Source: Pseudomonas hefeiensis
Lineage (GTDB): Bacteria > Pseudomonadota > Gammaproteobacteria > Pseudomonadales > Pseudomonadaceae
Length of the DNA stretch: 64,000 bases
Assembly (NCBI RefSeq): GCF_030687835.1
Contig: NZ_CP117449.1
Coordinates: forward strand, 2,914,001-2,978,000
Reading direction: 5' to 3'
Below the pieces are notes generated by a model. It saw only the letters and a list, made by a program, of their open reading frames with translations, was not told where the DNA came from and searched no databases. Position numbers and translations under genes: made by a program. Of this stretch, positions 21,246 through 60,775 are shown piece by piece; positions within the stretch are counted from its first letter, which is position 1, and every line of letters begins with the position of its first letter.

Positions 21246-24172
21246 CAGGCCGCGCCTCCCGCTACCGGTTGTGCAATGGGTTTTGGATGCAGGCCAGGCT
21301 TGTGGGCCCGCACCGATTGGTGCGCCAGAGCGGTGAGAATCAACAGGGTCGAACCGACCACTACGGCGTAGACGCCGATGTCGAAGAACAGCGCGCTGGC
21401 CAAGTGAATATCACCCAGCAACGGCAACTCGAAATGCCAGGTGTGGGTGGTCAGGAACGGATAACCGACGGCCATCGCCCCAAGTCCCGTGACCGTGGCG
21501 AACAACAGCCCCGTGCCCATCCAGCGCAGCGGACGCAGGCTCATCTGCGCTTCGACCCATTGGGTGCCGGCGACCATGTATTGCAAGATGAACGCCACCG
21601 ACATCACCAGTCCGGCGACGAAACCGCCACCGGGTTGGTTATGACCGCGCATGAACAGGTAGAACGACACCACCAGGGAGATCGGCAGCAGCAAGCGCAC
21701 CAGCACCGACGGCACCATCATGAACCCCAGCGCGGTATCACTGGCGTGGCGCGGGTTGACCAGATCGGTGACCACGTCGGGTGCCAGCAGACGCTGTTGG
21801 GCCGGTAGCTGCATGCTTTCCTTGGGTGGTCGGAAACGGCGCAGCAGGGCGAAGACCGCCAGGGCCACCGCCGCCAGCACTGTGATTTCTCCCAAGGTGT
21901 CGAAGCCGCGGAAATCCACCAGCATCACGTTCACCACGTTGCTGCCGCCGCCCTCGGGCAAGGCCCGGCTGAGGTAAAACGAAGAAATATCGTTGGGTGT
22001 CTGACGGGTCAGCATCGCGTAGGACAGCAGCGCCATGCCGCCACCGACGGCGATGGACAGCAACAGATCCCGCAGGCGCCGGATGCGGGCGCGTCGTTCG
22101 CTGTTGGGCCGCGGCGCTGCATCCTCGATCCGCCGGGGCAGCCAGCGCAGGCCCAGCAGGATCAGCACCGTGGTCACCACTTCCACGGCCAGTTGCGTCA
22201 GGGCCAGATCGGGCGCCGAGAACCAGACGAAGGTCACGCAGGTCATCAGGCCGCAGACGCTGACCATGGTCAGGGCCGCGAGCCGGTGATACTTGGCCTG
22301 CCAGGCCGCGCCCAGGGCGCAGGCAATTGCCAGTAGCCACAGGGTCACGAACACGATGGAGCCGGGGATCTTCGGCCGGTCGCCCCACACCAGCGGGCTG
22401 TTGAGCATCGGAATCAGTCCCGCCAGTACGGCGGCCAGCACCAGCCAGAACAACTGCGCTTGCAGGCGCCGGGTACTGATCTTGCGTTCCAGTCGTCGGC
22501 CCTGACGCATCATTAGCACCAGGCAGCGCTCGAACAGCCGCTTGCCGCTGAATCGACCAATGAACGGTGGATGGGTGATGTGGCCCAGTTTGAACTGATT
22601 GCGCAGCAGCAGATAAAGCACGATGCCGCCGGACATCGCCACCAGGCTCATGATCATCGGCGCGTTCAGACCGTGCCAGATTGCCAGGCTGTACTCAGGC
22701 AACGGGCCGCCCACCACCGGCAGTGCGGCGGCTGCCAGCAACGAACCGACCACTTGGGCAGGGAAAATGCCTACCAGCAGACAGGCGAACACCAGCAACT
22801 CCACCGGCGCTCGCATCCAGCGTGGAGGCTCATGGGGGGTATGGGGCAGGTCGGTGGCGGTGGGGCCGAAGAACACGTCCACGGTAAAGCGCAGGGAGTA
22901 GGCGACGCTGAAGGTCCCGGCGATGGTGGCGATGATTGGCAGCGCCAACTCGACCCAGGCCGTGGCGGAGATGAACACGGTTTCGGCGAAGAACATCTCC
23001 TTGGACAAGAACCCGTTGAGCAGCGGCACTCCGGCCATCGCCGCGCTGGCGACCATGGCCAGGGTGGCGGTGAACGGAATCAGCCGCACCAGACCGCTGA
23101 GCCGACGAATATCGCGGGTGCCGCTTTCGTGGTCGATGATCCCGGCGGCCATGAACAGCGAGGCTTTGAAGGTGGCGTGGTTAAGAATATGAAACACCGC
23201 CGCCACCGCGGCCAACGGACTGTTGAGACCCAGTAACAGGGTGATCAGCCCCAGATGGCTGATGGTGGAGTAGGCCAGCAGCCCCTTGAGGTCGTTCTGG
23301 AACATCGCGCAGTAGGCACCCAGCAACAACGTACAGGCCCCGGCGCCGCCGACGATGTAAAACCATTGTTCACTGCCCGACAGCGACGGCCACAACCGCG
23401 CCAGCAGGAATACACCGGCCTTGACCATGGTGGCCGAATGCAGATACGCCGACACCGGAGTGGGCGCGGCCATGGCATGGGGAAGCCAGAAATGAAAAGG
23501 AAACTGCGCACTTTTGCTCAGCGCGCCGATCAGGATCAGCGGCAGCAGAACGGGGTAGAGGGTGTGGTCACGGATCACGTTGCCGGCAGCCAGGACCTGG
23601 TCCAGGTCATAGCTGCCCACCACATGGCCGAGGATCATCACGCCGGCCAACAGGCACAACCCGCCGGCCCCGGTCACCATCAAGGCCATGTAGGCACCGC
23701 GCCGGGCATCGGCGCGGTGGTGCCAATAGCCGATCAGCAGGAATGAGAACAGGCTGGTCAGTTCCCAGAAGAACACCATCTGGATCAGGTTGCCGGAAAT
23801 CACCAACCCAAGCATGGCGCCCATGAAGGCCAGGAAAAACGCAAAGAAACGCGGTACCGGATCGTCCGGCGACATGTAGTAGCGGGCATACAGCGACACC
23901 AGCGTGCCGATGCCCAGCACCAGCATCGCGAACAGCCAGGCGAAACCGTCCAGGCGCAGCACGAAATTCAGGCCCAGGCTCGGTAGCCAGAAATACTCCT
24001 CACGAATCACGCCACCGTCGGCGATCTGCGGGTACAGCAAAGCCACCTGAACGGTGCCGACCAAGGCCACGAGGCCTGCCAGCAAAGATTCGGCGTTACG
24101 GGCGTTATGCGGCAGCAGCGCCGCGATACAGCTGCCGATGAAGGGCAAAAGCAATAGAACTATCAGTGACAT
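21245..24172 (-). CDS. mrpA: Mrp Na+/H+ antiporter subunit A fused to subunit B
   Basis: A 975-residue membrane protein. The first ~500 residues are NuoL-like (SLYARYYMSPDDPVPRFFAF, HSATMVKAGVFLLARLWPSL). Then comes the MrpA C-terminal region (DLALTQLAVEVVTTVLILLG). The last ~150 residues correspond to MrpB (SVLVRLLLPISLVVSFYLFM, RGHNQPGGGFVAGLV). The A-B fusion is typical of the group 2 Mrp/Pha/Sha systems found in Pseudomonas. It is the main Na+(K+)/H+ translocating subunit and contributes to salt and pH tolerance. First gene of the operon. Confidence 0.95.
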   Translation of the reverse strand: MSLIVLLLLPFIGSCIAALLPHNARNAESLLAGLVALVGTVQVALLYPQIADGGVIREEYFWLPSLGLNFVLRLDGFAWLFAMLVLGIGTLVSLYARYYMSPDDPVPRFFAFFLAFMGAMLGLVISGNLIQMVFFWELTSLFSFLLIGYWHHRADARRGAYMALMVTGAGGLCLLAGVMILGHVVGSYDLDQVLAAGNVIRDHTLYPVLLPLILIGALSKSAQFPFHFWLPHAMAAPTPVSAYLHSATMVKAGVFLLARLWPSLSGSEQWFYIVGGAGACTLLLGAYCAMFQNDLKGLLAYSTISHLGLITLLLGLNSPLAAVAAVFHILNHATFKASLFMAAGIIDHESGTRDIRRLSGLVRLIPFTATLAMVASAAMAGVPLLNGFLSKEMFFAETVFISATAWVELALPIIATIAGTFSVAYSLRFTVDVFFGPTATDLPHTPHEPPRWMRAPVELLVFACLLVGIFPAQVVGSLLAAAALPVVGGPLPEYSLAIWHGLNAPMIMSLVAMSGGIVLYLLLRNQFKLGHITHPPFIGRFSGKRLFERCLVLMMRQGRRLERKISTRRLQAQLFWLVLAAVLAGLIPMLNSPLVWGDRPKIPGSIVFVTLWLLAIACALGAAWQAKYHRLAALTMVSVCGLMTCVTFVWFSAPDLALTQLAVEVVTTVLILLGLRWLPRRIEDAAPRPNSERRARIRRLRDLLLSIAVGGGMALLSYAMLTRQTPNDISSFYLSRALPEGGGSNVVNVMLVDFRGFDTLGEITVLAAVALAVFALLRRFRPPKESMQLPAQQRLLAPDVVTDLVNPRHASDTALGFMMVPSVLVRLLLPISLVVSFYLFMRGHNQPGGGFVAGLVMSVAFILQYMVAGTQWVEAQMSLRPLRWMGTGLLFATVTGLGAMAVGYPFLTTHTWHFELPLLGDIHLASALFFDIGVYAVVVGSTLLILTALAHQSVRAHKPGLHPKPIAQPVAGGAA

Positions 24173-24431
24173 AGGCTTCTATTCGGCGGGAGTTTGTCAG
24201 GGATCATACGTGGCGTGCGTCCGATCACCAACCGCCAGCCTGTCGCAGAATCCTACAAGGTAGATGGATTTTTCCTGTTTTTGGGTGTTTCGGTGAGCGC
24301 CGGTTCGTTGGGATCGGCCAAGGATAACAAGGCACTCGTACCACACGAACGGTCTCCGGGTGCAGTACCTATGTACCGCACTTCAGCACGGCTTCATCGC
24401 CATGCTGCGCCATACAGAAAAGGAGATCTGT

Positions 24432-26990
24432 ATGGCAACGCGAACATTTAGCGATGGATCAGATGGAACGGTAGTCATCAGGCCTGGGCCAACGGCTTCA
24501 GGTGGCGGTTTCCAGATTGGAAGCGGCGGCTTTTCAGGCGGGTTTGGTGGCTCGGGCAGCAGGCGCAGCAAACGCCGCCGTAAAGCCAGGGCCAGAGCCA
24601 GGTACGAACAGATTAAGGCCCAGCAAGAAGCTCAGGCAAAGGCAGACGCGGAGAAGGCCACCGCCATGGCCCAGGAGCAAGCGCGTCTCCAGGCACGGCA
24701 ACAAGCGCTGGCGACAATGGTCCAGCGATACACCAATACCCGGGCCGAGGTGGATCGGAACTTCGCGGGCAAAAAGCAACAACTCGACGCATCTCTTCAA
24801 AAGGACATCGCCGCCGCAAAACGGCCCCCCGTTTCGAACTCGACCGAACGCTGGCAGCTATACACCATCACCAAAGAGAAAAACGAGATCGACGGGCTGA
24901 TCGCCCGAAAAACCACGGAACTCAACGCCAAGAACAGCGCCGCCCGTGTCTTCGACGGACAGGATCCGCTCACCCGTTCGGCGAACGACTACCGCACGCG
25001 ACTGGCTCAATTCGGCGCCGCGCTTGAAGAAGGTCACCGACTCTGGGAACAGGCTTACACCGCGGCCCAAGAGGCCCGGCTGCTGTCGGAGCAGATCAAG
25101 GCACTCACCGAAAAGTCCAACTCGCTGGCCCGGCACCATGCCGAACAGACCGTGGTTTGGCGGGAGCGGGAGGCTGTCTGGGAGCGCCAACGTCAGTATG
25201 CCGAGCAGCGGGCGGAGCGCATCCGTTTCAAACAGCAAGTGGATGAAAGCATTCGACTGGAGCGGTTCAGGCAAATCCATACCCTGAGTGTGCCTGCGCT
25301 TTCGATGACTGCGGGCGGGATGGTATTGAGCCAGGGGACCGTGTTTGTGCCCCGGCAAGACACGGCGGTATTGGACAAGGCTGTCCAGTCGACCGTGGAG
25401 ATGCTCGGTGAGTTAAAGAGCATTGCCTTGAAGGGGCCAGGTTTATTTATCGCGCTGGCGACACACACCACCCCTCTGGGCAACGGAGAACTTACTGTCG
25501 AGCAACGTCGACGATTGTTTCAAGGCGTTGGCGTACCGGCCCAGGCACTGGGTCTGGCGGACGAGCAGAGGCTGAGGTCAGTTGCCGACGCAGGTGGCTC
25601 GGTAGAAATGCCTCACCGGCTAAAACCTGAAACCGTATCCGAAGGCACCACGATCCACGTCGCCAGTACCGGCGGGGCAATCAGTGCTCAGGTTCCGGTC
25701 ATCAATGCAGTCCTGGACCCACTGTCCGGCCTCTATAAGGCCGAAGTTCCTGGCGTTGTAACCCGGCAACTACAGTTCGCCACTGACGCGGTGCCACACA
25801 CTGCCCCGACAACCCCGTCAGTGCTGATGCTCATGGCGCCACAAGTCGAGACCCTTCCGGCGGGCGCGGACCTACGCATTCAAGACTGCATCGTCTGCGT
25901 GCCTGGCCTGCCACCAACCTATTTCTCTTTCGATTTGCCACCCCTCGGCTCAGGCATCGTCACGGGCGCTGGCAAACCGGCAGCGAATGATTGGTGGAAC
26001 ACCGCAAGCCAGGCCCAGGGTGCGGCCATTCCCGAACAGCTCGGCCACCAGCTACGGGCTCGGGAAATCAAGTCGTTCAGTGCTTTCGATCAGGCCGTAT
26101 GGCAAACCCTGGCCGAGCATCCGACGCTGTGGAGCGACATAGACGAAATCAACCAAAAACGCATCGAACGTGGCTTTGCGCCCTATGCGCCGAAAAGCAC
26201 TTGGGTCGGTGAGCGTCGCCAATTCGAACTGCGTTACCAGGAGCGGGCAGAGCTGGGTGAAAACCCGTTCAACCTCGACCGCATCAGCATTACCACGCCA
26301 AACAGCCTGCTCGGCAGACCGGGTATCGTCCCGGCCGTCATACCCTGGCCGGCGCCTCCCATCGGCAACGGCCCCCGAACACCCCTGGTCCCGCCGGGCA
26401 TCGAACAGCTCGGCCCGACCACCTTACCGATTACACCGCCACTTTCGCCGGTATATCCCGGCAACCCTGTAATCCCGGTCCTACCGGAAAACGAGACGTT
26501 TCCGGCTGTTGATCCGGGGCAAGTCGGTGCCAATATTCCGGGGTATCCGGCGGACATGGAGCTGCCTTCGCCGGGGTTGGTGTTTGTCGGCCCTCCGGTA
26601 GAACCGTTGGAGGTGGGGCCGTATAACGAACTCAGTGGTCGAAGCAGAGCGGATGGGTTGGATATTGATCACATACCGTCTAGGAAGGCGTTGGAGTTTC
26701 ATATTCGTATGAACGGTTACGATATGAGCCCCTTCGAAATCCGGGAAGCGATCCGACGGGCACCGTGCATTGCCGTTCCTTCAAGTGTCCATCGCGAATT
26801 CAGTGAGACGTATGGTGGACGCAACAGTTTGGAGAAGAGCATGAATGATGCTGCAGATCTGGAGGCAGCAGTGAACAGTAACCTAGCAGCACTAAAACCG
26901 GGTCTTATGGAGTCTGGTGCATCAGAGTCAGATATAGATGCGGCCCTAGAGTTGTTGCACGATTTGCATAAAAAACAGGGGTGGTACTGA
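24432..26990 (+). CDS. S-type pyocin/colicin-like bacteriocin with dead internal DNase domain and novel C-terminal toxin
   Basis: An 852-residue bacteriocin starting at ATG 24432 (AGGAG upstream). A Gly/Ser-rich start (10-43) is followed by a basic RRSKRRRKARARARY patch, a long helical coiled coil (about 55-280) and a pyocin S translocation domain (about 285-505). Residues 517-628 are homologous to a colicin/pyocin HNH DNase (WWNTASQAQGAAIPEQL...), but the HNH core ELHH...TPKRHIxxH has become ELRY...TPNSLLG, so it cannot be catalytic. A proline-rich linker (629-713) leads to a different C-terminal domain (725-852) with DIDHIPS (Asp746/His747), His787 and TYGGRN. That pattern suggests a His-Me-finger-like nuclease, but I do not recognise the family. 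No LexA-type box was seen upstream. The immunity gene follows directly. Confidence 0.88.
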   Translation: MATRTFSDGSDGTVVIRPGPTASGGGFQIGSGGFSGGFGGSGSRRSKRRRKARARARYEQIKAQQEAQAKADAEKATAMAQEQARLQARQQALATMVQRYTNTRAEVDRNFAGKKQQLDASLQKDIAAAKRPPVSNSTERWQLYTITKEKNEIDGLIARKTTELNAKNSAARVFDGQDPLTRSANDYRTRLAQFGAALEEGHRLWEQAYTAAQEARLLSEQIKALTEKSNSLARHHAEQTVVWREREAVWERQRQYAEQRAERIRFKQQVDESIRLERFRQIHTLSVPALSMTAGGMVLSQGTVFVPRQDTAVLDKAVQSTVEMLGELKSIALKGPGLFIALATHTTPLGNGELTVEQRRRLFQGVGVPAQALGLADEQRLRSVADAGGSVEMPHRLKPETVSEGTTIHVASTGGAISAQVPVINAVLDPLSGLYKAEVPGVVTRQLQFATDAVPHTAPTTPSVLMLMAPQVETLPAGADLRIQDCIVCVPGLPPTYFSFDLPPLGSGIVTGAGKPAANDWWNTASQAQGAAIPEQLGHQLRAREIKSFSAFDQAVWQTLAEHPTLWSDIDEINQKRIERGFAPYAPKSTWVGERRQFELRYQERAELGENPFNLDRISITTPNSLLGRPGIVPAVIPWPAPPIGNGPRTPLVPPGIEQLGPTTLPITPPLSPVYPGNPVIPVLPENETFPAVDPGQVGANIPGYPADMELPSPGLVFVGPPVEPLEVGPYNELSGRSRADGLDIDHIPSRKALEFHIRMNGYDMSPFEIREAIRRAPCIAVPSSVHREFSETYGGRNSLEKSMNDAADLEAAVNSNLAALKPGLMESGASESDIDAALELLHDLHKKQGWY
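26378..26574 (+). repeat. 197-bp direct repeat, copy 1 (pyocin linker)
   Basis: This segment encodes residues about 650-714 of the pyocin, the proline-rich linker (PLVPPGIEQLGPTTLP ...PADMELPSP). It recurs at 28320-28516 with one mismatch (T at 26444, C at 28386) and no gaps, in the same orientation. Sequence identity stops sharply at both ends. The two copies bracket the present toxin tip and its immunity gene. Confidence 0.97.
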
Positions 26991-27466
26991 TGAATGTTTT
27001 TGAATTTGAAGTACTCATCGAACGTATCGGAACTTCGCACGAGGTACTGGTAGGGCAGGGCGTACTTCCCGACCAAACATTGACCGAAATATATGAGGGG
27101 CGAGATCGTCTTGAGCTTGAACTGGAACCGGGTATTGAGTTGGAGTTCTGGCGTGAGACGAGGAGGTTCGAGACGCTTTTCGTTACACTCATACGAACCA
27201 TACCTTCTATGTCGAAATATGAAGGCGAGCTTCCTATTTCATATATGTTGGAAATGACGCAGTCTGATGTTCATGCGGTTTTCGGGGAACCGATGGCATC
27301 GAAAGGTCCAATAAAGATGCCAGTGCCGATAGGGATGACTGGGGGGTGGGATTCGTACCCGTTGGACCCAGAACTGTATCCCGGTAAAAAGGTTGTTTTT
27401 CAATATGCCCAGGATATGAGAGTGAAAACCTTGGTCTTCACTTTGATAGATAAAGGGCACCGTTGA
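26990..27466 (+). CDS. Immunity protein of the pyocin (DUF6392-like)
   Basis: A 158-residue acidic, cytoplasmic-looking protein whose ATG shares one base with the toxin's TGA, the usual toxin/immunity coupling. The C-terminal half (ISYMLEMTQSDVHAVFGEP, then PIKMPVPIGMTGGWDSYPLD and VVFQYAQDMRVKTLVFTLI) recalls small DUF6392-type proteins found beside toxins; that name is from memory. It is not related to the colicin E/Im9-type immunity proteins downstream, which agrees with the toxin tip being a different domain. A broken second copy of its 5' end is at 27698-27830. Confidence 0.8.
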   Translation: MNVFEFEVLIERIGTSHEVLVGQGVLPDQTLTEIYEGRDRLELELEPGIELEFWRETRRFETLFVTLIRTIPSMSKYEGELPISYMLEMTQSDVHAVFGEPMASKGPIKMPVPIGMTGGWDSYPLDPELYPGKKVVFQYAQDMRVKTLVFTLIDKGHR

Positions 27467-27514
27467 TCAAGATGATGATCGCGCCGAATCGCTTTTATCG
27501 AGAATGGCTGCTAA

Positions 27515-27585
27515 ATGATCTTCAAAAAAATATGAAGACTATACCGAATTTGAGTCTTTATAAACCCGGCTTCAAGCCGGAATAG
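27515..27585 (+). pseudogene. Collapsed Im9-type immunity gene (start and end only)
   Basis: The first bases from ATG 27515 (ATGATCTTCAAAAA...GACTATACCGAATTTGAG) match the start of the intact Im genes at 28033 and 28935. After about 40 bp the sequence jumps to AAACCCGGCTTCAAGCCGGA and TAG, the end of the same gene (NKPGFKPE). About 200 bp is missing between. The flank to about 27655 resembles the flank after the intact gene at 29211-29282. Confidence 0.75.
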
Positions 27586-27670
27586 ATCAGGCCCCGCGTA
27601 CGCATCTGCTCGAACAATCGAGCAGGTGCATTGCCGAGCATGCACGCTTAAACATATTCCGTCGAGGGTG

Positions 27671-27830
27671 GCCTTCATAAAAAACAAGGATGGTACTAAT
27701 GAACAAGTTGGGCTTGAAGAGCTTATTAAAAGTATTGGAAGTAGTCATGAGGCCTTGATAAGTCGGGGGCTCCTGCCGGATGGTCGTTGAGTGAAACGTA
27801 TGAAGGTCGGGATCGGTTGGGGTTTAAGCC
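27671..27830 (+). pseudogene. Remnant of a second copy of the pyocin toxin end plus its immunity gene start
   Basis: CATAAAAAACAAGGATGGTA encodes HKKQGWY and is followed by TAA, the last residues of the intact pyocin (HKKQGWY). It is followed at once by GLEELIKSIGSSHEALISRG then LLPDG, homologous to the intact immunity protein's VLIERIGTSHEVLVGQGVLP. The start is shifted by one base and a second shift near 27780 carries the reading on into LSETYEGRDRL. It then breaks into the DNase tail at about 27833. It cannot be expressed as an immunity protein. Confidence 0.75.
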
Positions 27831-28036
27831 AGAGCTTCAACGAAAGGAATCTGAAACATATGCTTAACGGCTCTGCAGCGTATCCAAGTCAACTTGATCA
27901 AGTCGGCGGACGCAAAAAATTTGAATTGCACCATAAGGTAGAGGTGGCAAAAGGCGGCGGGGTTTACGATATGGAAAATCTGGTTGTTATGACTCCTAAG
28001 CGGCATATCCATATTCATAAAGGTAACGGCCAATGA
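27791..28036 (+). pseudogene. Truncated colicin-type HNH DNase tail
   Basis: From about 27833 the frame reads FNERNLKHMLNGSAAYPSQ, then DQVGGRKKFELHH and VYDMENLVVMTPKRHIHIH. This is the C-terminal half of a colicin E/pyocin HNH DNase with all motif histidines present. The first half of the nuclease and any delivery domain are missing; the first 14 codons of this open frame derive from the broken immunity gene. Its stop overlaps the next immunity gene (ATGA). Unlikely to be a working toxin. Confidence 0.75.
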
Positions 28037-28311
28037 TCTTTGCGAAGAAGAAGTATGAGGAGTACACAAAGAGTGAATTTCTCGATTTTTTACGCTGTTT
28101 TTTTGAGTTTCCTGACGGCATGAGGGGGGAAGCCCTGAATGATTACACAGACCAACTAATTGATCACTTCAATGAGATTACTGAGCATCCAGATCGCTCA
28201 GACGTTATTTTCTACCCAAAGAAAGATCAGGAGGACAGTCCAGAAGGAATACTAAAAGAGGTAAAAGAATGGCGAGCGCGCCATAACAAGCCTGGTTTCA
28301 AGCCAGAATAA
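28033..28311 (+). CDS. Colicin/pyocin DNase immunity protein (Im9-type)
   Basis: A 92-residue member of the Im2/Im9 family of colicin E/pyocin DNase immunity proteins. Helix III motif HPDRSDVIFYP corresponds to HPSGSDLIYYP in Im9, followed by EDSPEGILKEVKEWRARHNK and GFKPE. Such proteins bind the DNase exosite in the cytoplasm. It is intact, although the toxin it would match at 27791-28036 is broken, so it may be kept as an orphan immunity gene. Confidence 0.93.
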   Translation: MIFAKKKYEEYTKSEFLDFLRCFFEFPDGMRGEALNDYTDQLIDHFNEITEHPDRSDVIFYPKKDQEDSPEGILKEVKEWRARHNKPGFKPE

Positions 28312-28319
28312 ACCACCCT

Positions 28320-28516
28320 AACACCCCTGGTCCCGCCGGGCATCGAACAGCTCGGCCCGACCACCTTACCGATTACACCGCCACTCTCGCCGGTATATCC
28401 CGGCAACCCTGTAATCCCGGTCCTACCGGAAAACGAGACGTTTCCGGCTGTTGATCCGGGGCAAGTCGGTGCCAATATTCCGGGGTATCCGGCGGACATG
28501 GAGCTGCCTTCGCCGG
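28320..28516 (+). repeat. 197-bp direct repeat, copy 2 (head of orphan DNase cassette)
   Basis: It is identical to 26378-26574 except at one base. It starts 8 bp after the stop of the Im gene and stays open in frame with the DNase that follows, so the codons align exactly with the pyocin linker. It is the point at which an exchange would join the pyocin body to the orphan nuclease. Confidence 0.97.
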
Positions 28517-28929
28517 ATGCGCTGTTTTATGACCGGCGGGATGATCATGGCGTGGCGCTGGGGTTTGGGCGGCCAGTGTCGGGCATTTGGTTGGGGGAGG
28601 TGGCGAGGACGACTGGCGCACCTATTCCTGATCGGATTGCGGATCAGTTGAGGGGGAGGAAGTTTGCGAATTTTCATCGGTTCAGGGAGGCGGTTTGGAA
28701 GTCCGTGGCGGTGGATGCGGAGCTGGGTCAGCAATTTACCGGCATCAATTTGGATAGGATGCGAAATGGCCAGTCACCATACTCCATAAGAAAGGACCAA
28801 GTAGGAGGGCGAAAAGTATTTGAACTCCATCATGAGATTGAAATTTCAAAAGGTGGTGATGTGTATAACGTGGACAACATTCGTGTACTTACGCCCAAGC
28901 GTCACATCCAACACCACAGGGAGGGTTAA
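28498..28929 (+). CDS. Orphan colicin E/pyocin-type HNH DNase cassette
   Basis: A complete nuclease domain without delivery domains. From ATG 28498 it has 143 residues: GIWLGEVARTTGAPIPDRIA, DQLRGRKFANFHRFREAVW, DQVGGRKVFELHH and VYNVDNIRVLTPKRHIQHH. HNH histidines are at 111, 112, 136 and 140. The open frame extends upstream through the linker repeat to 28312 but has no convincing start, so the ATG is nominal and expression as it stands is doubtful. Its codon phase matches the pyocin linker, so recombination through the repeat would yield a standard DNase pyocin. The Im gene follows after 5 bp. Confidence 0.85.
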   Translation: MELPSPDALFYDRRDDHGVALGFGRPVSGIWLGEVARTTGAPIPDRIADQLRGRKFANFHRFREAVWKSVAVDAELGQQFTGINLDRMRNGQSPYSIRKDQVGGRKVFELHHEIEISKGGDVYNVDNIRVLTPKRHIQHHREG

Positions 28930-28934
28930 GGATA

Positions 28935-29210
28935 ATGATCTTTAAAGAAGCGCTGGAAGATTATACCGAGCTGGAATTTTTATCCTTTCTCGGGGAGCTG
29001 TTCCATAATACGAGTGATCTTAAAGGGCAGGACCTGGGGAAGTATCTGGATAAACTGGTTGATCATTTCGAACTTATTACAGAACACCCCGACGGTTCAG
29101 ATGTTCTCTTCTACCCAAAGGAAGGCCAGGAAGACAGCCCCGAAGGCATCCTGAAAGAAGTCAAGGAATGGCGCGCCCGCAATAACAAACCCGGCTTCAA
29201 GCCCGAATAA
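28935..29210 (+). CDS. Colicin/pyocin DNase immunity protein (Im9-type), second copy
   Basis: A 91-residue Im2/Im9-family protein: DYTELEFLSFLGELFHNTSD, HPDGSDVLFYPKEGQEDSPE and the end NNKPGFKPE. The C-terminal ~45 residues are nearly identical to those of the 28033 copy while the N-terminal specificity helices (Im9 helices I-II) differ, as expected for immunity to different DNases. It lies 5 bp after the orphan DNase, so it is its likely partner. Confidence 0.93.
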   Translation: MIFKEALEDYTELEFLSFLGELFHNTSDLKGQDLGKYLDKLVDHFELITEHPDGSDVLFYPKEGQEDSPEGILKEVKEWRARNNKPGFKPE

Positions 29211-29293
29211 TCCCGCCCGTTGAACGCATCTGCCCGACACGCCGCGAGCAGGTGCGTCATCGAGGACGTACGCTTAAACAAGGAAAACCCAAG

Positions 29294-31129
29294 ATGGAAC
29301 TTAAACCAAAACTCAAGGATTACACCGAGTCCGAGTTTCAGATGTTCGTCGACAAAATCTGGGACGTGGATACCGATAAAGAAAATCATGACCGGCTCAT
29401 CGCCCACTTTGATCAAATAGTCGGTCATCCCAGCGGAGCGGACCTGTTGTTTTATTCGCAGGACCCCTTCAATCCGAATTCCCCGGGCGCTGTCGTCTAC
29501 CATCTCAAACATTGGTATCACCAAAAGAAAGTTATTCCTTTCAAGAACGGAGTGCTTCCAGCGCCATTCACACCGGTCACCGGGTCGAGCTTCGTTGAAA
29601 ACGCCACGGCGAGAGCCAGGCGCGAACTTGCCAATGCGCAGCGGATGGGGGCGGACATTGCCGCTGCAGAGCAAACGATTGAGTCGACGTACTCTCTGCT
29701 TGAAAGCGCTATTAAGCATCTGCCGATCCAACAAGATCCGAACGTGACGCTGAAGGAGTTGGAAAAAGGCATCCGCCAGATCGAGCACGCGCAGCATGAG
29801 GTGCTGATGGCCGTTCGTGCATTCGAACGCAAGAAAATGGGCGTTGAATTCGCCAAAAACACGGCCCAGCAGAATCTCACTTATAACCAAGCTGACAAAA
29901 CCGTTTGGCAAGCCAATGTGCAGCAGGCTACGGCCAATCACGGTCGTTATATTGCGCGTTTATCCTTGATCACCCAGCGCCATGCTCAACTTCACGCCAG
30001 GGCCGAAACCGCGGTAGAACATGCTTGGCAGCAACGGGTGCGCTTGCGTACCTTCGATCAGTACCGAAACGTGTTTCGTCTGTCTATCGCCGATAACCAG
30101 GGCCGCCCGAATCTATTGATTAGCAACGCGCAGCCGCTGATGCCAGTGCAACGAATGGACTTGCAAAAGACCATCCGTTCGGCAATCGCCGAGTTCCATT
30201 GGTCACTGACCGACGGCGCGCAGGAGCATCTAGGGCAATACGCTGGCGTGGTGAGCTTCAACTTCGTCAGTCGAGCCAAGGCCGTGCGCTTTGGCCTCTG
30301 CGTGCCGTTGACCGAGCTCTCCCTGATTGATCCTGATTGGCATGTGCTTGCCGCCCAGCGTGGTGAGGTCGAGTTGCCTATGCGAATGAGTGCCACGACG
30401 GTCGCGGTGAAACCCGGCAGCCTGTCTTATGGGCTAAAAGCAATACGCGAGCTTTTCGAGATCTATATCACGCCCTGCGCCGGGGGTTTACCTGCGAAGG
30501 TTCGTGTCAGGCCAGCGGTCTGGCATGAAGACGAGAGGGTTTACCGTTTCACGACAGATGACCGGCAGGACTCCGCTATCGAATGGGCGCAACCCCCTGG
30601 CTTGGAGGCGTCAGTTGAGACCAAGCTGGATCGGCTCGATTCCGCTGGCTTTGTCCGGTCCTCACCGGTGCCCGAATTGGCCTCGTTCGACTCTGTCGAA
30701 GAGGTGCGATTCGATGATTATGTCGTGGTGTTCCCCCACGATTCCGGGCTGGAGCCGGTTTATGTGATGTTCAACGACCGTCGGGATTGTCCGGGTGTCG
30801 TGAGCGGAGCAGGGCTGGAGGTGGCTGAGGGCTGGCAGACGCAAGCGGCGAGCAGCCAGGGCGCCCCTGTTCCGGCGTTGGTTGCCGATCAATTGCGCGG
30901 GCAAGTCTTCGAGCGTTTAGACCTGTTCAAACGTGCGTTCTGGAAAGCTGTCGCGGCGACGCCGACACTGAACGCACAGTTCACAATGGACAACCGGGTG
31001 TTACTGCTCAGCGGTTCGGCGCCTCGCAGCGAGCAACCCGGTCATCGTGCGCTGCGCATCTTGCACCGTGTCGACGTCACGCAAGGCGGTGGTGTCTACG
31101 ATCTTGATAACCTGATTGTTCGTGGTTGA
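29294..31129 (+). CDS. Immunity-pyocin fusion protein: Im9-type domain, coiled coil, pyocin S domain, truncated HNH domain
   Basis: A 611-residue protein starting at ATG 29294. Residues 1-86 are a full Im9-type immunity domain (MELKPKLKDYTESEFQMFVD, HPSGADLLFYS). The same chain then continues into a helical region (about 100-270), a pyocin S translocation domain (about 275-500) and, at 513-611, a DNase-like domain (GWQTQAASSQGAPVPALVAD...). In that last part only the first HNH histidine (591, LHR) remains, the second is Arg592, and the chain stops at DNLIVRG before the TPKxHIxxH end. The frame is continuous across the immunity/pyocin junction. The protein is therefore not a nuclease. It may be an immunity protein with an oversized tail, or a scar of deletion. 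Confidence 0.85.
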   Translation: MELKPKLKDYTESEFQMFVDKIWDVDTDKENHDRLIAHFDQIVGHPSGADLLFYSQDPFNPNSPGAVVYHLKHWYHQKKVIPFKNGVLPAPFTPVTGSSFVENATARARRELANAQRMGADIAAAEQTIESTYSLLESAIKHLPIQQDPNVTLKELEKGIRQIEHAQHEVLMAVRAFERKKMGVEFAKNTAQQNLTYNQADKTVWQANVQQATANHGRYIARLSLITQRHAQLHARAETAVEHAWQQRVRLRTFDQYRNVFRLSIADNQGRPNLLISNAQPLMPVQRMDLQKTIRSAIAEFHWSLTDGAQEHLGQYAGVVSFNFVSRAKAVRFGLCVPLTELSLIDPDWHVLAAQRGEVELPMRMSATTVAVKPGSLSYGLKAIRELFEIYITPCAGGLPAKVRVRPAVWHEDERVYRFTTDDRQDSAIEWAQPPGLEASVETKLDRLDSAGFVRSSPVPELASFDSVEEVRFDDYVVVFPHDSGLEPVYVMFNDRRDCPGVVSGAGLEVAEGWQTQAASSQGAPVPALVADQLRGQVFERLDLFKRAFWKAVAATPTLNAQFTMDNRVLLLSGSAPRSEQPGHRALRILHRVDVTQGGGVYDLDNLIVRG

Positions 31130-31169
31130 CTTCGTCTGGGCCCCTCAAATCGGTGCAGAGGATGGGGAA

Positions 31170-32102
31170 TCAACCTTCGCGCTCAGGCACTTCAGCCACC
31201 TCGACCGCATTTTTGCCCCGAGTCTTCAGTTCGCTGACGATCACCGCCGCCACGATCAGCCCCGCGCCTACCAGCGCAATCGCCGGCAACCGCTCGCCGG
31301 CCAGGCGTCCGGCAATGCCGGCCCATACCGGTTCCCCGGCATAGATCAGCGTGGCGCGGGTGGGCGAGACGCTTTTCTGTGCCCAGTTCATCGCCACCTG
31401 GATCGCCGCGCTGGCGGCGCCCAGGCCCACGGCACTGACCAGTAGCAACCAGGAAAATGGCGGGATCGTTTCTTGGGTCGGCACCACCATCAGGAACGCC
31501 AGCACCGCCGTGCTCGCCAGTTGCACCACGGTTACCCGGCGCACATCGACCTGGCCGGCGTAGGCGCTGATCAGGATGATTTCGGCGGCAATGGCGATGG
31601 CGCTGATCAGCGTGGCGATTTCACCGGGGCTGAAATTCAACGATGCCCCGGCCGGGCCTGACACCAGCATCAACCCGGTGAATGCCAGCATGATGCCGAG
31701 GCTGGGCATCAAGCCGGGCCGGCGGCCCAGCACCAGCCACTGCAACAGCGGCACGAACGGCACGTACAGCGCGGTGATGAACGCCGACTGGCTGCTGGGA
31801 ATGGTCTGCAGGCCGACGGTCTGCAAGCCATAGCCGAGCATGATCGCCACGCCGATGAAGCATCCGGCCTTGAGTTCGAACAGGGTCAGGTCGCGCAGAT
31901 GCCGCCACGAAAACAGCGCGACAAACGCTGCTGCGGCGGCAAACCGCAAGCCTACGAAAAACATCGGTCCGCTGACCGTCATGGCGTGCTGCACCAGCAA
32001 GAAGGTTCCACCCCAGATCATGGTGATCAGCACCAGCACGCATTCGGCCTTGCTGAACCTTGAGAAACGGGAGGAAGCTTGAGGGGAGTTCACCGATGCC
32101 AT
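31170..32102 (-). CDS. EamA/DMT-family transporter
   Basis: A 310-residue drug/metabolite transporter with ten hydrophobic segments in two EamA repeats (MIWGGTFLLVQHAMTVSGPM, ALYVPFVPLLQWLVLGRRPG, and in repeat two YAGEPVWAGIAGRL). Start ATG at 32100-32102 leaves a normal N-terminus ahead of helix 1. DMT exporters typically move amino acids or metabolites out of the cell. Divergent from an XRE-cupin regulator across 75 bp, a common pairing in which the regulator controls the exporter. Confidence 0.9.
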   Translation of the reverse strand: MASVNSPQASSRFSRFSKAECVLVLITMIWGGTFLLVQHAMTVSGPMFFVGLRFAAAAAFVALFSWRHLRDLTLFELKAGCFIGVAIMLGYGLQTVGLQTIPSSQSAFITALYVPFVPLLQWLVLGRRPGLMPSLGIMLAFTGLMLVSGPAGASLNFSPGEIATLISAIAIAAEIILISAYAGQVDVRRVTVVQLASTAVLAFLMVVPTQETIPPFSWLLLVSAVGLGAASAAIQVAMNWAQKSVSPTRATLIYAGEPVWAGIAGRLAGERLPAIALVGAGLIVAAVIVSELKTRGKNAVEVAEVPEREG

Positions 32103-34217: not shown

Positions 34218-34227
34218 ACACCGCCCC

Positions 34228-34349
34228 CTGTGGCGAGGGGATTTATCCCCGCTGGGTCGCGTAGCGGCCCCAAAATTCCTTCCTGACACACCGAGGCGTC
34301 AGTTTCAGGGGCGCTTCGCACCCCAGCGGGGATAAATCCCCTCGCCACA
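34228..34349. repeat. REP pair (GGCGAGGGGATTTATCCCC family), inverted
   Basis: CTGTGGCGAGGGGATTTATC at 34228 and its reverse complement ending at 34349 (GATAAATCCCCTCGCCACA) face each other across a 70-bp centre. This is a Pseudomonas REP doublet (REPIN-like) in the convergent gap after the flavoprotein gene. Same family as 47742-47860. Confidence 0.9.
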
Positions 34350-34375
34350 AAGGTGGGGCACAAATCGGCAGCGTG

Positions 34376-35574: not shown

Positions 35575-35595
35575 ATTTCGTGGGCACTGAGACCC

Positions 35596-35683
35596 TGTGG
35601 GAGCGGGCTTGCTCGCGAATGGGGTGGATCAGTCAATACAGTGGTGACTGACCTTCCGCATTCGCGAGCAAGCCCGCTCCCAC
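35596..35683. repeat. REP pair (GTGGGAGCGGGCTTGCTCGC family), inverted
   Basis: GTGGGAGCGGGCTTGCTCGC at 35596 faces GCGAGCAAGCCCGCTCCCAC ending at 35683. It is a typical fluorescent-Pseudomonas REP doublet between the Gfo/Idh/MocA gene and the SDR gene. Confidence 0.93.
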
Positions 35684-35696
35684 AAGTGGAACATCA

Positions 35697-38132: not shown

Positions 38133-38175
38133 CGGGCGTGAGGTGGACGCAGGCTTGCTGCCCACCGCGATCTCC

Positions 38176-38268
38176 CTGTGGGAGCGGGCTTGCTCGCGAA
38201 GAGGCCGGTACATTCAGTACTGAATGTCGACTGTTAGGCCGCTTTCGCGAGCAAGCCCGCTCCCACAC
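38176..38268. repeat. REP pair (GTGGGAGCGGGCTTGCTCGC family), inverted
   Basis: CTGTGGGAGCGGGCTTGCTC at 38176 and TTCGCGAGCAAGCCCGCTCC ending in CAC at 38268 form an inverted REP doublet in the convergent gap between the DUF4280 gene and the MORN-repeat gene. Confidence 0.93.
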
Positions 38269-47674: not shown

Positions 47675-47741
47675 TGTGTGGAACTCCTGAAGTCGAGTGG
47701 GGTGTTACCCGATACCGAACCGTTAAAGATGAACGCTGAAC

Positions 47742-47860
47742 CTGTGGCGAGGGGATTTATCCCCGCTGGGCTGCGCAGCAGCCCCCTAAGCGGTCCACTT
47801 AGGGTGGTCAGATTTAGGGCCGCTTCGCGCCCCAGCGGGGATAAATCCCCTCGCCACAAG
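47742..47860. repeat. REP pair (GGCGAGGGGATTTATCCCC family) between tssC and hcp
   Basis: CTGTGGCGAGGGGATTTATC at 47742 and the inverted copy ending CTCGCCACAAG at 47860 frame a 70-bp centre with its own short palindromic parts. It sits inside the leftward T6SS operon, just upstream of hcp. Confidence 0.92.
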
Positions 47861-58647: not shown

Positions 58648-58754
58648 GCTGTGCTCCTGTGGGCGCTTTGCTGAGGTGCAGGTATTCAACCTGATTGTAG
58701 AGCCCAAGGCAGAGACCTTTGGTAATTTATATTTATTTCGGACTGAGCATCCTT

Positions 58755-58842
58755 GTGGGAGCGGGCTTGCTCGCGAATGCGGCGGGTCATTGAGCTAACG
58801 TGATGCTGACACACCGCCTTCGCGAGCAAGCCCGCTCCCACA
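58755..58842. repeat. REP pair (GTGGGAGCGGGCTTGCTCGC family), inverted
   Basis: GTGGGAGCGGGCTTGCTCGC at 58755 and GCGAGCAAGCCCGCTCCCAC ending at 58841 form an inverted REP doublet in the gap between the dehydrogenase and the transporter genes. Confidence 0.93.
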
Positions 58843-59026
58843 GGACATGCGTCAGCAGCTTCTATTGGAATGATCTGATCCGTATTACCGCTCCTCAGCT
58901 AAGTCTTTGCTTCTGCTCGTTAATCCCGGACAATCGCGCCCCTGTTTCGGCCAGGGCGCTGCCTGTCGGGGTTTTCTGACTCGTCCCGGCCGGGTGCATG
59001 TGACCGGAATGCGGAGATCCGACCGG

Positions 59027-60315: not shown

Positions 60316-60680
60316 CCGGTGGGAGCGGGCTTGCTCGCAAAAGCGGTGGGTCAGTTTGCATTGATGTTGGATGTGCCGACGCCTTCGCGAGCAGGCTCGC
60401 TCCCACATGGAGTCTTGGGTATTCATAAATTCGACATTCACCATAAATCCCGGTGGGAGCGGGCTTGCTCGCGAAAGCGGTGGGTCAGTTTGCATTGATG
60501 TTGGATGTGCCGACGCCTTCGCGAGCAGGCTCGCACACATGGAGTCTTGGGTGTTCATAGATTCGTCATTCACCATAAATCCCGGTGGGAGCGGGCTTGC
60601 TCGCGAAAGCGGTGGGTCAGTTTGCATTGATGTTGGATGTGCCGACGCCTTCGCGAGCAGGCTCGCTCCCACAGTTTTTC
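60316..60680. repeat. Three tandem ~133-bp repeats each bearing a REP pair
   Basis: The unit begins at the CCGG before GTGGGAGCGGGCTTGCTCGC and recurs at 60316, 60450 and 60582, giving unit lengths of 134 and 132 bp. Each carries the REP pair and a unique centre (TCAGTTTGCATTGATGTTGG...), and the first two also a spacer (GTCTTGGGT..TCACCATAAATCC). Copy 2 lost a few bases in its second REP; copy 3 ends after its REP. Open frames in it encode only the repeated peptide and are not genes. Confidence 0.95.
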
Positions 60681-60715
60681 GAGGCGTCCACAGAAACAGC
60701 GTCAGACACCGATCC

Positions 60716-60740
60716 CCTGTGGGAGCGAGCCTGCTCGCGA
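60716..60740. repeat. Single REP copy near acnB
   Basis: CCTGTGGGAGCGAGCCTGCT at 60716 is a variant REP half (GCGAGCC instead of GCGGGCT) without a nearby inverted partner, lying between the tandem repeats and the acnB terminator. Confidence 0.75.
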
Positions 60741-60775
60741 TGGCGTCGGTTCAGTTTGCCTCGAAACTACAGGCA

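What the first reader, a model, noticed from the sequence alone, without database searches (positions are those of the whole stretch)
26378..28516. A 197-bp in-frame repeat could swap the pyocin's toxin tip
Seen: 26378-26574 (pyocin linker) and 28320-28516 are identical at 196 of 197 positions, in the same orientation, 1942 bp apart, and in the same codon phase. The first copy joins to the current toxin tip and immunity gene. The second joins to a full HNH DNase with its own Im gene. Recombination between them would remove the present tip and its immunity and give a complete DNase pyocin with matching immunity. Sharp repeat ends suggest recent exchange. Known: orphan tip/immunity cassettes with homologous junctions are described for Rhs and CDI toxins. 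Inference: a similar switch for an S-type pyocin.
Basis: partly seen in the sequence, partly recalled or inferred. Interest (0 to 1): 0.85.

Follow-up and report, generated by a model that had tools for sequence, protein, structure and literature searches.

The report
Pyocin with a spare toxin tip
A Pseudomonas gene for a bacteria-killing protein sits beside a displaced spare toxin end with its own antidote, joined through a shared linker, and related strains carry either end on nearly the same protein body, so this weapon appears to change its killing part by exchange at that linker.

Summary
The repeat is real: 26378-26574 and 28320-28516 match at 196 of 197 bases, same orientation and codon phase, the only copies found in the 6.45-Mb single-contig genome. 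The locus encodes an S-type pyocin. Its body ends in a conserved proline-rich linker, then tip A (TseN-like DNase by profile and fold) with a DUF6392 immunity gene. Downstream lie module scraps, linker copy 2, an intact colicin-type HNH DNase tip (D) and its Im gene.

Relatives support exchange at this linker. In 120 homologues the body is conserved to the linker end; then come two tip families, A (37) and D (83). The label changes at least 25 times on the body tree. P. agronomica is collinear with this locus but lacks exactly the segment between the copies. For 2 of 4 loci with a whole orphan tip, a protein is known with a 99.3-99.9% identical body carrying that orphan tip.

Not shown: that this strain ever switches. 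The repeat is best read as the scar of an insertion that displaced the D cassette, which also makes reversal possible. It works like CDI/Rhs orphan modules, in a diffusible bacteriocin: a new variant of a known kind.

The parts
24432..26990 (+). Main S-type pyocin gene, 852 aa (ATG chosen by me; the longest ORF starts at GTG 24360)
   Evidence: Pyocin_S at residues 382-497 and Col-Pyo_DNase-like domain at 508-624
25953..26303 (+). DNase-like domain inside the body, inactivated: Arg in place of the first His of the HH pair
   Evidence: PF21431 match; Arg at residue 601 in 120 of 120 aligned homologues
26378..26574 (+). Linker, copy 1, ends at the tip boundary
   Evidence: 196 of 197 identical to copy 2; conserved motif in relatives
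26574..26990 (+). Tip A, mounted: TseN-like DNase (predicted)
   Evidence: profile match to 9j9w_B E 3.4e-7; fold match E 1.7e-5
26990..27466 (+). Immunity gene of tip A, DUF6392
   Evidence: PF19929 E 8.2e-12; follows tip A in 22 of 22 cases
27515..27654 (+). Scar: start and end of an Im gene plus its downstream flank
   Evidence: repeats D3, D5, D7 with 29187-29280; 27562-27654 = 29187-29280 at 77.9%
27673..27840 (+). Broken remnant: end of a tip A and start of a DUF6392-type immunity gene (limits approximate)
   Evidence: repeat D6, translation, 79% match to L062
27821..28036 (+). C-terminal half of another D-type DNase
   Evidence: PF21431 positions 58-124, E 3.4e-22
28033..28311 (+). Complete orphan Im gene
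   Evidence: PF01320 E 3.9e-31
28320..28516 (+). Linker, copy 2
28516..28929 (+). Orphan tip D, complete HNH DNase, in frame with linker copy 2
   Evidence: PF21431 E 1e-48, full profile
28935..29210 (+). Im gene of orphan tip D
   Evidence: PF01320 E 2e-33
29294..31129 (+). Conserved right border: Im domain fused in frame to a Pyocin_S and degenerate DNase-like part
   Evidence: three Pfam domains; ORF of more than 300 aa in 43 of 44 loci
29187..29280 (+). Second copy of a weaker direct repeat (with 27562-27654) that brackets the D cassette
   Evidence: 77.9% over 95 columns

Best explanation
The locus is a polymorphic S-type bacteriocin whose C-terminal killing module (tip plus immunity gene) is exchanged by recombination at a conserved linker. 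Two module types circulate: A (TseN-like DNase with DUF6392 immunity) and D (colicin-type HNH DNase with Im). This strain carries both in a stack: A is mounted on the body, and an intact D cassette with its own linker is parked downstream. Most likely the lineage once had D mounted, as in P. thivervalensis and P. agronomica; DNA with linker, tip A and immunity came in by a crossover in or before the linker and joined non-homologously in front of the old linker, which displaced D and left the linker repeated. Recombination between the two linkers would remount D and delete A with its immunity. Shown: the repeat, the intact modules, collinear A-only and D-only relatives, repeated A/D changes, and orphan tips found mounted on near-identical bodies. 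Inferred: the order of events here, the non-homologous join, and that the deletion occurs.
For: Body conserved to the linker motif, then two unrelated tip families, 37 A and 83 D, among the 120 best of 246 homologues. Tip label changes at least 25 times on the body tree, 21 forced by starred branches. Near-identical bodies with different tips: P0047/P0105 703/708; isolates SJZ080 and P. migulae NBRC 103157 695/708. Orphan tips found mounted elsewhere: L037/P0098 (body 717/718, tip 138/140) and L083/P0095 (710/715, 138/138). L063 collinear with the window without the segment between the copies; L062 and L034 carry only A. L083 shows how an insertion displaces a tip. Tip/immunity pairing without exception, 57 of 57.
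Against: No recombinant of this strain was seen. Only 2 of 4 whole orphan tips have a near-identical mounted counterpart; for the window the nearest D-tip body is 90% identical, and its best tip match (P0022, 95%) sits on a body only 76% identical; L036's orphan tip has a stop and its best match is 69%. The orphan linker is closest to its own genome's main linker in 3 of 5 loci, not in L036 and L076. P0098 and P0095 come from short metagenome contigs. The incongruence test for linker homogenisation was weak.
Confidence: 0.84

Rival explanations
1. Standing switch: the strain keeps D as a loaded spare, and homologous recombination between the two linkers regularly remounts it in part of the population, as shown for Salmonella rhs.
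For: 197-bp near-perfect in-frame repeat; intact D tip and Im; the product architecture exists in relatives; experimental precedent in rhs (PMC3967940 passages).
Against: No junction seen in this strain; open, linker-bearing orphan cassettes are rare (2 of 46 loci); the deletion would remove tip A immunity, and no duplication of the locus was found that would keep it.
Confidence: 0.25
2. Immunity reservoir: the parked modules are decaying scraps, retained mainly because their Im genes protect against D-type pyocins of neighbours; the tip is a passenger.
For: Two complete PF01320 Im genes are kept while neighbouring tip pieces are broken; orphan Im genes without tips in L064 and L082; orphan immunity shown to protect in P. 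aeruginosa PAO1 (PMC4905994 passages).
Against: The D tip next to copy 2 is complete, in frame and has its HH motif, as in L037. Does not exclude the best explanation; both can hold.
Confidence: 0.45
3. All tip exchange is allelic replacement by incoming DNA across linker and downstream flank; parked cassettes never return.
For: Exchange is frequent on the tree and many D and A loci carry no orphan (35 of 46 without extra elements).
Against: The mounted tips of P0098 and P0095 are the orphan tips of near-identical loci, though the direction cannot be told.
Confidence: 0.4
4. Assembly artefact: the second linker is a mis-assembly.
For: None from the calls; reads were not available.
Against: Single-contig genome; the copies differ at one site and lead into different complete modules; the right side is collinear with a D-tip relative for 3.2 kb.
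Confidence: 0.02

Closest known systems
Orphan cdiA-CT/cdiI modules of CDI systems (Poole 2011, PMC3150448; passages)
   Same: Constant body, exchangeable C-terminal toxin with cognate immunity, conserved boundary motif, promoterless orphan toxin-immunity pairs downstream, homology to the main gene ending at the boundary
   Different: CDI is contact-dependent two-partner secretion with a VENN boundary; here an S-type bacteriocin with a PG[YF]PxDMELPSP linker end
rhs main / rhs-CT orphan recombination in Salmonella (Koskiniemi 2014, PMC3967940; passages)
   Same: Repeat shared by main gene and orphan tip (522 bp, 95%) whose recombination mounts the orphan tip
   Different: Rearrangement shown experimentally there, not here; Rhs protein, not a bacteriocin
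Pyocin S1/S2/S6 loci of P. aeruginosa (Dingemans 2016, PMC4905994; passages)
   Same: S-type pyocins with exchangeable nuclease and immunity; PAO1 keeps an S6-type immunity gene behind a 250-nt 3' remnant of the S6 toxin gene
   Different: Only a broken toxin remnant is described there; here the orphan tip is complete and carries the linker in frame
Pseudomonas bacteriocins with an additional non-functional DNase domain (Sharp 2017, PMC5536347; passages)
   Same: Extra DNase domain without functional HNH motif, followed by HNH or non-HNH DNase: probably this family
   Different: Exchange at the linker and orphan cassettes were not in the passages I saw
TseN T6SS DNase (PMC12574953; passages)
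   Same: Profile and fold match to tip A
   Different: T6SS effector with TsiN immunity; here a bacteriocin tip with DUF6392 immunity, which matched no solved chain

Membership tests
S-type pyocin / nuclease bacteriocin | Pyocin_S translocation domain and C-terminal killing domain | tested here: met
   PF06958 in P0002; tip D is PF21431, tip A TseN-like
S-type pyocin / nuclease bacteriocin | Cognate immunity gene directly downstream | tested here: met
S-type pyocin / nuclease bacteriocin | Receptor-mediated uptake and killing of related strains | not testable with these tools
   needs an assay
Polymorphic toxin with orphan cassettes (CDI/Rhs-like organisation) | Constant body, variable C-terminal tip with sharp boundary | tested here: met
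Polymorphic toxin with orphan cassettes (CDI/Rhs-like organisation) | Orphan tip-immunity pairs downstream with homology to the body end | tested here: met
   window, L036, L037 with linker; L083 with a short remnant
Polymorphic toxin with orphan cassettes (CDI/Rhs-like organisation) | Recombination observed within a strain | not testable with these tools
   no reads available
CDI or Rhs system proper | Two-partner secretion (CdiA/CdiB) or Rhs repeat body | tested here: not met
   Pfam scan of the main protein shows only Pyocin_S and Col-Pyo_DNase
TseN DNase family (tip A) | Sequence and fold similarity | tested here: met
TseN DNase family (tip A) | Catalytic His | tested here: inconclusive
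   invariant His 73 of tip A aligns with an Ala in the crystallised H254A chain; residue numbering not verified
TseN DNase family (tip A) | DNase activity | not testable with these tools
   needs an assay
VPA1263-type T6SS effector | Curated NCBIfam score for the whole protein | tested here: not met
   92 bits against a cut-off of 900

The most novel reading that the evidence does not exclude
A diffusible bacteriocin works as a two-state weapon: the body with its universally inactivated DNase domain serves as a fixed import adaptor, either of two unrelated DNase tips can be mounted, and the last 40 or so linker codons, whose silent sites are more conserved than any body window, are kept as a DNA-level recombination patch, so that populations switch tip and immunity reversibly between the mounted and the parked cassette.
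Probability: 0.2. Interest if true: 0.8.

Novelty: new variant of a known kind. Interest (0 to 1): 0.58.

Why it matters
Spare immunity genes and broken toxin remnants behind pyocins are known, but how S-type bacteriocins change their killing domain is mostly inferred from distant chimeras. Here the two alternative alleles, the stacked form and their shared junction can be compared in near-identical strains, so gain, displacement and possible remounting of a tip become directly testable. It also carries the CDI/Rhs orphan-module idea over to a released bacteriocin and places a TseN-like DNase in a bacteriocin.

Tried and rejected
The plasmid search found 146 records, all at 60-80% identity and covering at most 4% of the query in the 20 shown, immunity genes of enterobacteria; no use. 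Two further genome draws added no new linker-bearing locus that I followed up; G367 has a partial body match only. The genome-contig scan gave 31 loci, all on draft contigs as far as the titles show; P. thivervalensis was not among them, so P0013 is known as protein only. The full-length model is poor (pLDDT 63.6, pTM 0.42) and is used only for the disordered linker; no fold search was run on it. The linker/body incongruence test was inconclusive, so homogenisation by recombination is not claimed. Considered and rejected: assembly artefact; a T6SS effector of the VPA1263 kind; the idea that sharp repeat ends prove recent exchange.

Rows dropped: 246 homologues passed, of 7999 scored candidates; only the best 120 were listed and used. 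Two of 120 (P0119, P0121) were left out of the tree for short bodies (118 rows). Of 36 genomes matched one is the window's own; 29 of the other 35 were fetched, 6 short weak matches (G117, G155, G161, G181, G323, G357) were not. Of 61 loci (29 + 31 + window), 13 duplicates and 2 without a linker (L085, L087) were removed, leaving 46; 40 of 46 entered the codon analysis. L054 has no detectable body upstream of its linker. L054 and L057 have no distal Im by my criterion, hence 44.
Full report
Observation. The repeat is as described: 26378-26574 and 28320-28516 agree at 196 of 197 positions, the single difference being synonymous. It was found twice in the whole genome, which is one contig of 6,451,026 bases. 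The spacing is 1942 bp and both copies lie in the same codon phase. A 201-column match at E 6.7e-98 is not chance. No call names the window's organism; relatives named are Pseudomonas, so I take it to be a Pseudomonas of the P. fluorescens group.

What the locus is. The main gene (24432-26990, 852 aa) has Pyocin_S and a Col-Pyo_DNase domain. That DNase-like domain lies inside the body and has Arg in place of the first His of the HH pair, in 120 of 120 aligned homologues. Sharp 2017 had already noted, for Pseudomonas bacteriocins with a dual Pyocin_S arrangement, that the additional DNase domain lacks a functional HNH motif (PMC5536347, passages). After it come a linker, predicted disordered (pLDDT about 30 at 631-700), and the killing tip. 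The present tip (A) has no Pfam match above threshold, but a profile of 11 tips matches one solved protein, the DNase TseN (E 3.4e-7), and its model (pLDDT 90.6) matches the same chain by fold (E 1.7e-5, TM 0.71 by query length; the only match below 0.001). TseN is a T6SS DNase with a cognate immunity protein (PMC12574953, passages). So the present tip is probably a DNase as well, of a fold other than D. Its immunity gene is DUF6392; a full-text search for DUF6392 found 0 papers.

The stack. Behind it lie, in order, an Im scar with its flank (27515-27654), a broken tip A end and immunity start (about 27673-27840), the C-half of a D-type DNase (27821-28036), a complete Im gene (28033-28311), linker copy 2 (28320-28516), a complete D tip in frame with it (28516-28929), its Im gene (28935-29210) and a conserved distal gene (29294-31129). 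A second pair of direct repeats, 27562-27654 and 29187-29280 (77.9%), brackets the D cassette.

Family evidence. In 120 proteins (the best of 246) identity to the window protein is high up to the end of the linker motif PG[YF]PxDMELPSP and then falls. The tips of these 120 form two unrelated families, D with 83 and A with 37 members; 80 of 83 D tips keep the HH motif, the other 3 are cut short. On a tree of body residues 1-640 (118 rows) the tip label changes at least 25 times, 21 forced by well supported branches; the label is still somewhat clustered (shuffled mean 31.2; 3 of 500 shuffles as low). The closest A/D pair, P0047 and P0105, has 703 of 708 identical body residues and unrelated tips (28 of 119); an isolate pair, Pseudomonas sp. 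SJZ080 (P0047) and P. migulae NBRC 103157 (L077), has 695 of 708.

Loci. Among 46 non-redundant loci, 17 have tip A followed by DUF6392 and 29 have tip D followed by an Im gene, without exception; counting also orphan tips that reach their C-end, 22 of 22 and 35 of 35. Extra tip or immunity elements between the cognate immunity gene and the distal gene occur in 11 of 46: window, L036, L037, L054, L062, L064, L065, L076, L082, L083, L084. A whole orphan tip is present in 4; in the window and L037 it is open and preceded by an in-frame linker, in L036 it holds a stop, in L083 only a short linker remnant precedes it.

The predicted product in relatives. L063 (P. agronomica) matches window 24000-26574 (81%) and 28315-31500 (80%) in one contiguous stretch that shares one linker: the window without the segment between the copies. 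L092 (P. uvaldensis) shows the same junction, but most of its body is missing. L062 and L034 show the other form: A mounted and no D cassette. These are other species, so they show the alternative allele, not an event in this strain. Stronger are two other stacked loci: L037's orphan D is 138/140 identical to the tip mounted on P0098, whose body is 717/718 identical; L083's orphan A is 138/138 identical to the tip mounted on P0095, body 710/715. P0098 comes from a short metagenome contig and could be a mis-assembly across the linkers. P0095, also from a short contig, is harder to explain so, because its linker differs from L083's main linker and ends EDLPSP like the remnant kept by L083's orphan. 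L036's orphan finds no such partner (best tip match 69%), and for the window the nearest D-tip body is P0013 (P. thivervalensis), 90% identical in body and 93% in tip to the orphan, as expected if D was once mounted in this lineage; the best tip match, P0022 (95%), has a body only 76% identical.

How orphans arise. In L083 the inserted DNA brought a changed linker end, D tip, Im gene and the start of the distal gene, and ends abruptly at the old linker end in front of tip A: one homologous end in the linker, one non-homologous join. The window fits the same scheme with the join in front of the old linker. This is inference from structure. Poole 2011 and Koskiniemi 2014 describe the matching idea for CDI and Rhs, including remounting by deletion and the cost of losing the main immunity gene; the latter proposes that the locus is duplicated first (passages). 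Zhang 2012 proposes that replacement of tips leaves strings of immunity genes in polymorphic toxins; its section comparing them with colicins and pyocins does not mention orphan cassettes for these (passages and section 43). Ghequire 2017 notes S pyocins that differ basically only in the toxin-immunity module, and additional immunity genes downstream of some bacteriocins (passages). Dingemans 2016 describes in P. [quoted passage not shown]

An unexplained feature. Fourfold-degenerate third bases in linker residues 682-714 are more alike between species than expected (+0.29 over the body's codon-family means); the best of 608 body windows reaches +0.12. A test whether the linker's history differs from the body's was weak: rank correlation with body distance 0.75, body median 0.82, lowest body window 0.61; near-identical linkers on diverged bodies in 1 of 780 pairs. 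DNA-level constraint and homogenisation both remain open.

Against. No recombinant of this strain was seen; orphan linkers are closest to their own main linker in window (194/195, next best 176/195), L037 and L065 but not in L036 and L076; open in-frame orphans are rare (2 of 46). No paper with intact, linker-bearing orphan tips in S-type pyocins turned up in full-text searches, of which I saw listings and passages of the papers cited; PMC3390384 and PMC4509608 passages did not describe them either. The library lacks most subscription journals, among them the review that Sharp 2017 cites for this family.

Noticed in passing
29294-31129: An Im domain fused in frame to a Pyocin_S and degenerate DNase-like part; an ORF of more than 300 aa from this Im is present in 43 of 44 loci, mostly about 500 aa. 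It may be a decoy or a helper immunity protein; function unknown to me.
   Followed up: partly
25953-26303: DNase-like domain inside the pyocin body with Arg for the first catalytic-pair His in 120 of 120 homologues; kept though inactive, perhaps for import.
   Followed up: partly
26443-26574: Silent sites of the last linker codons are strongly conserved between species, including a Leu CTA codon kept in 33 of 34.
   Followed up: partly
34227-34350, 35594-35686, 38173-38267, 47741-47859, 58750-58844, 60316-60759: Scattered 90-125-bp repeats in both orientations, several palindromic, with a tandem cluster at 60316-60759; REP-like by memory.
   Followed up: no
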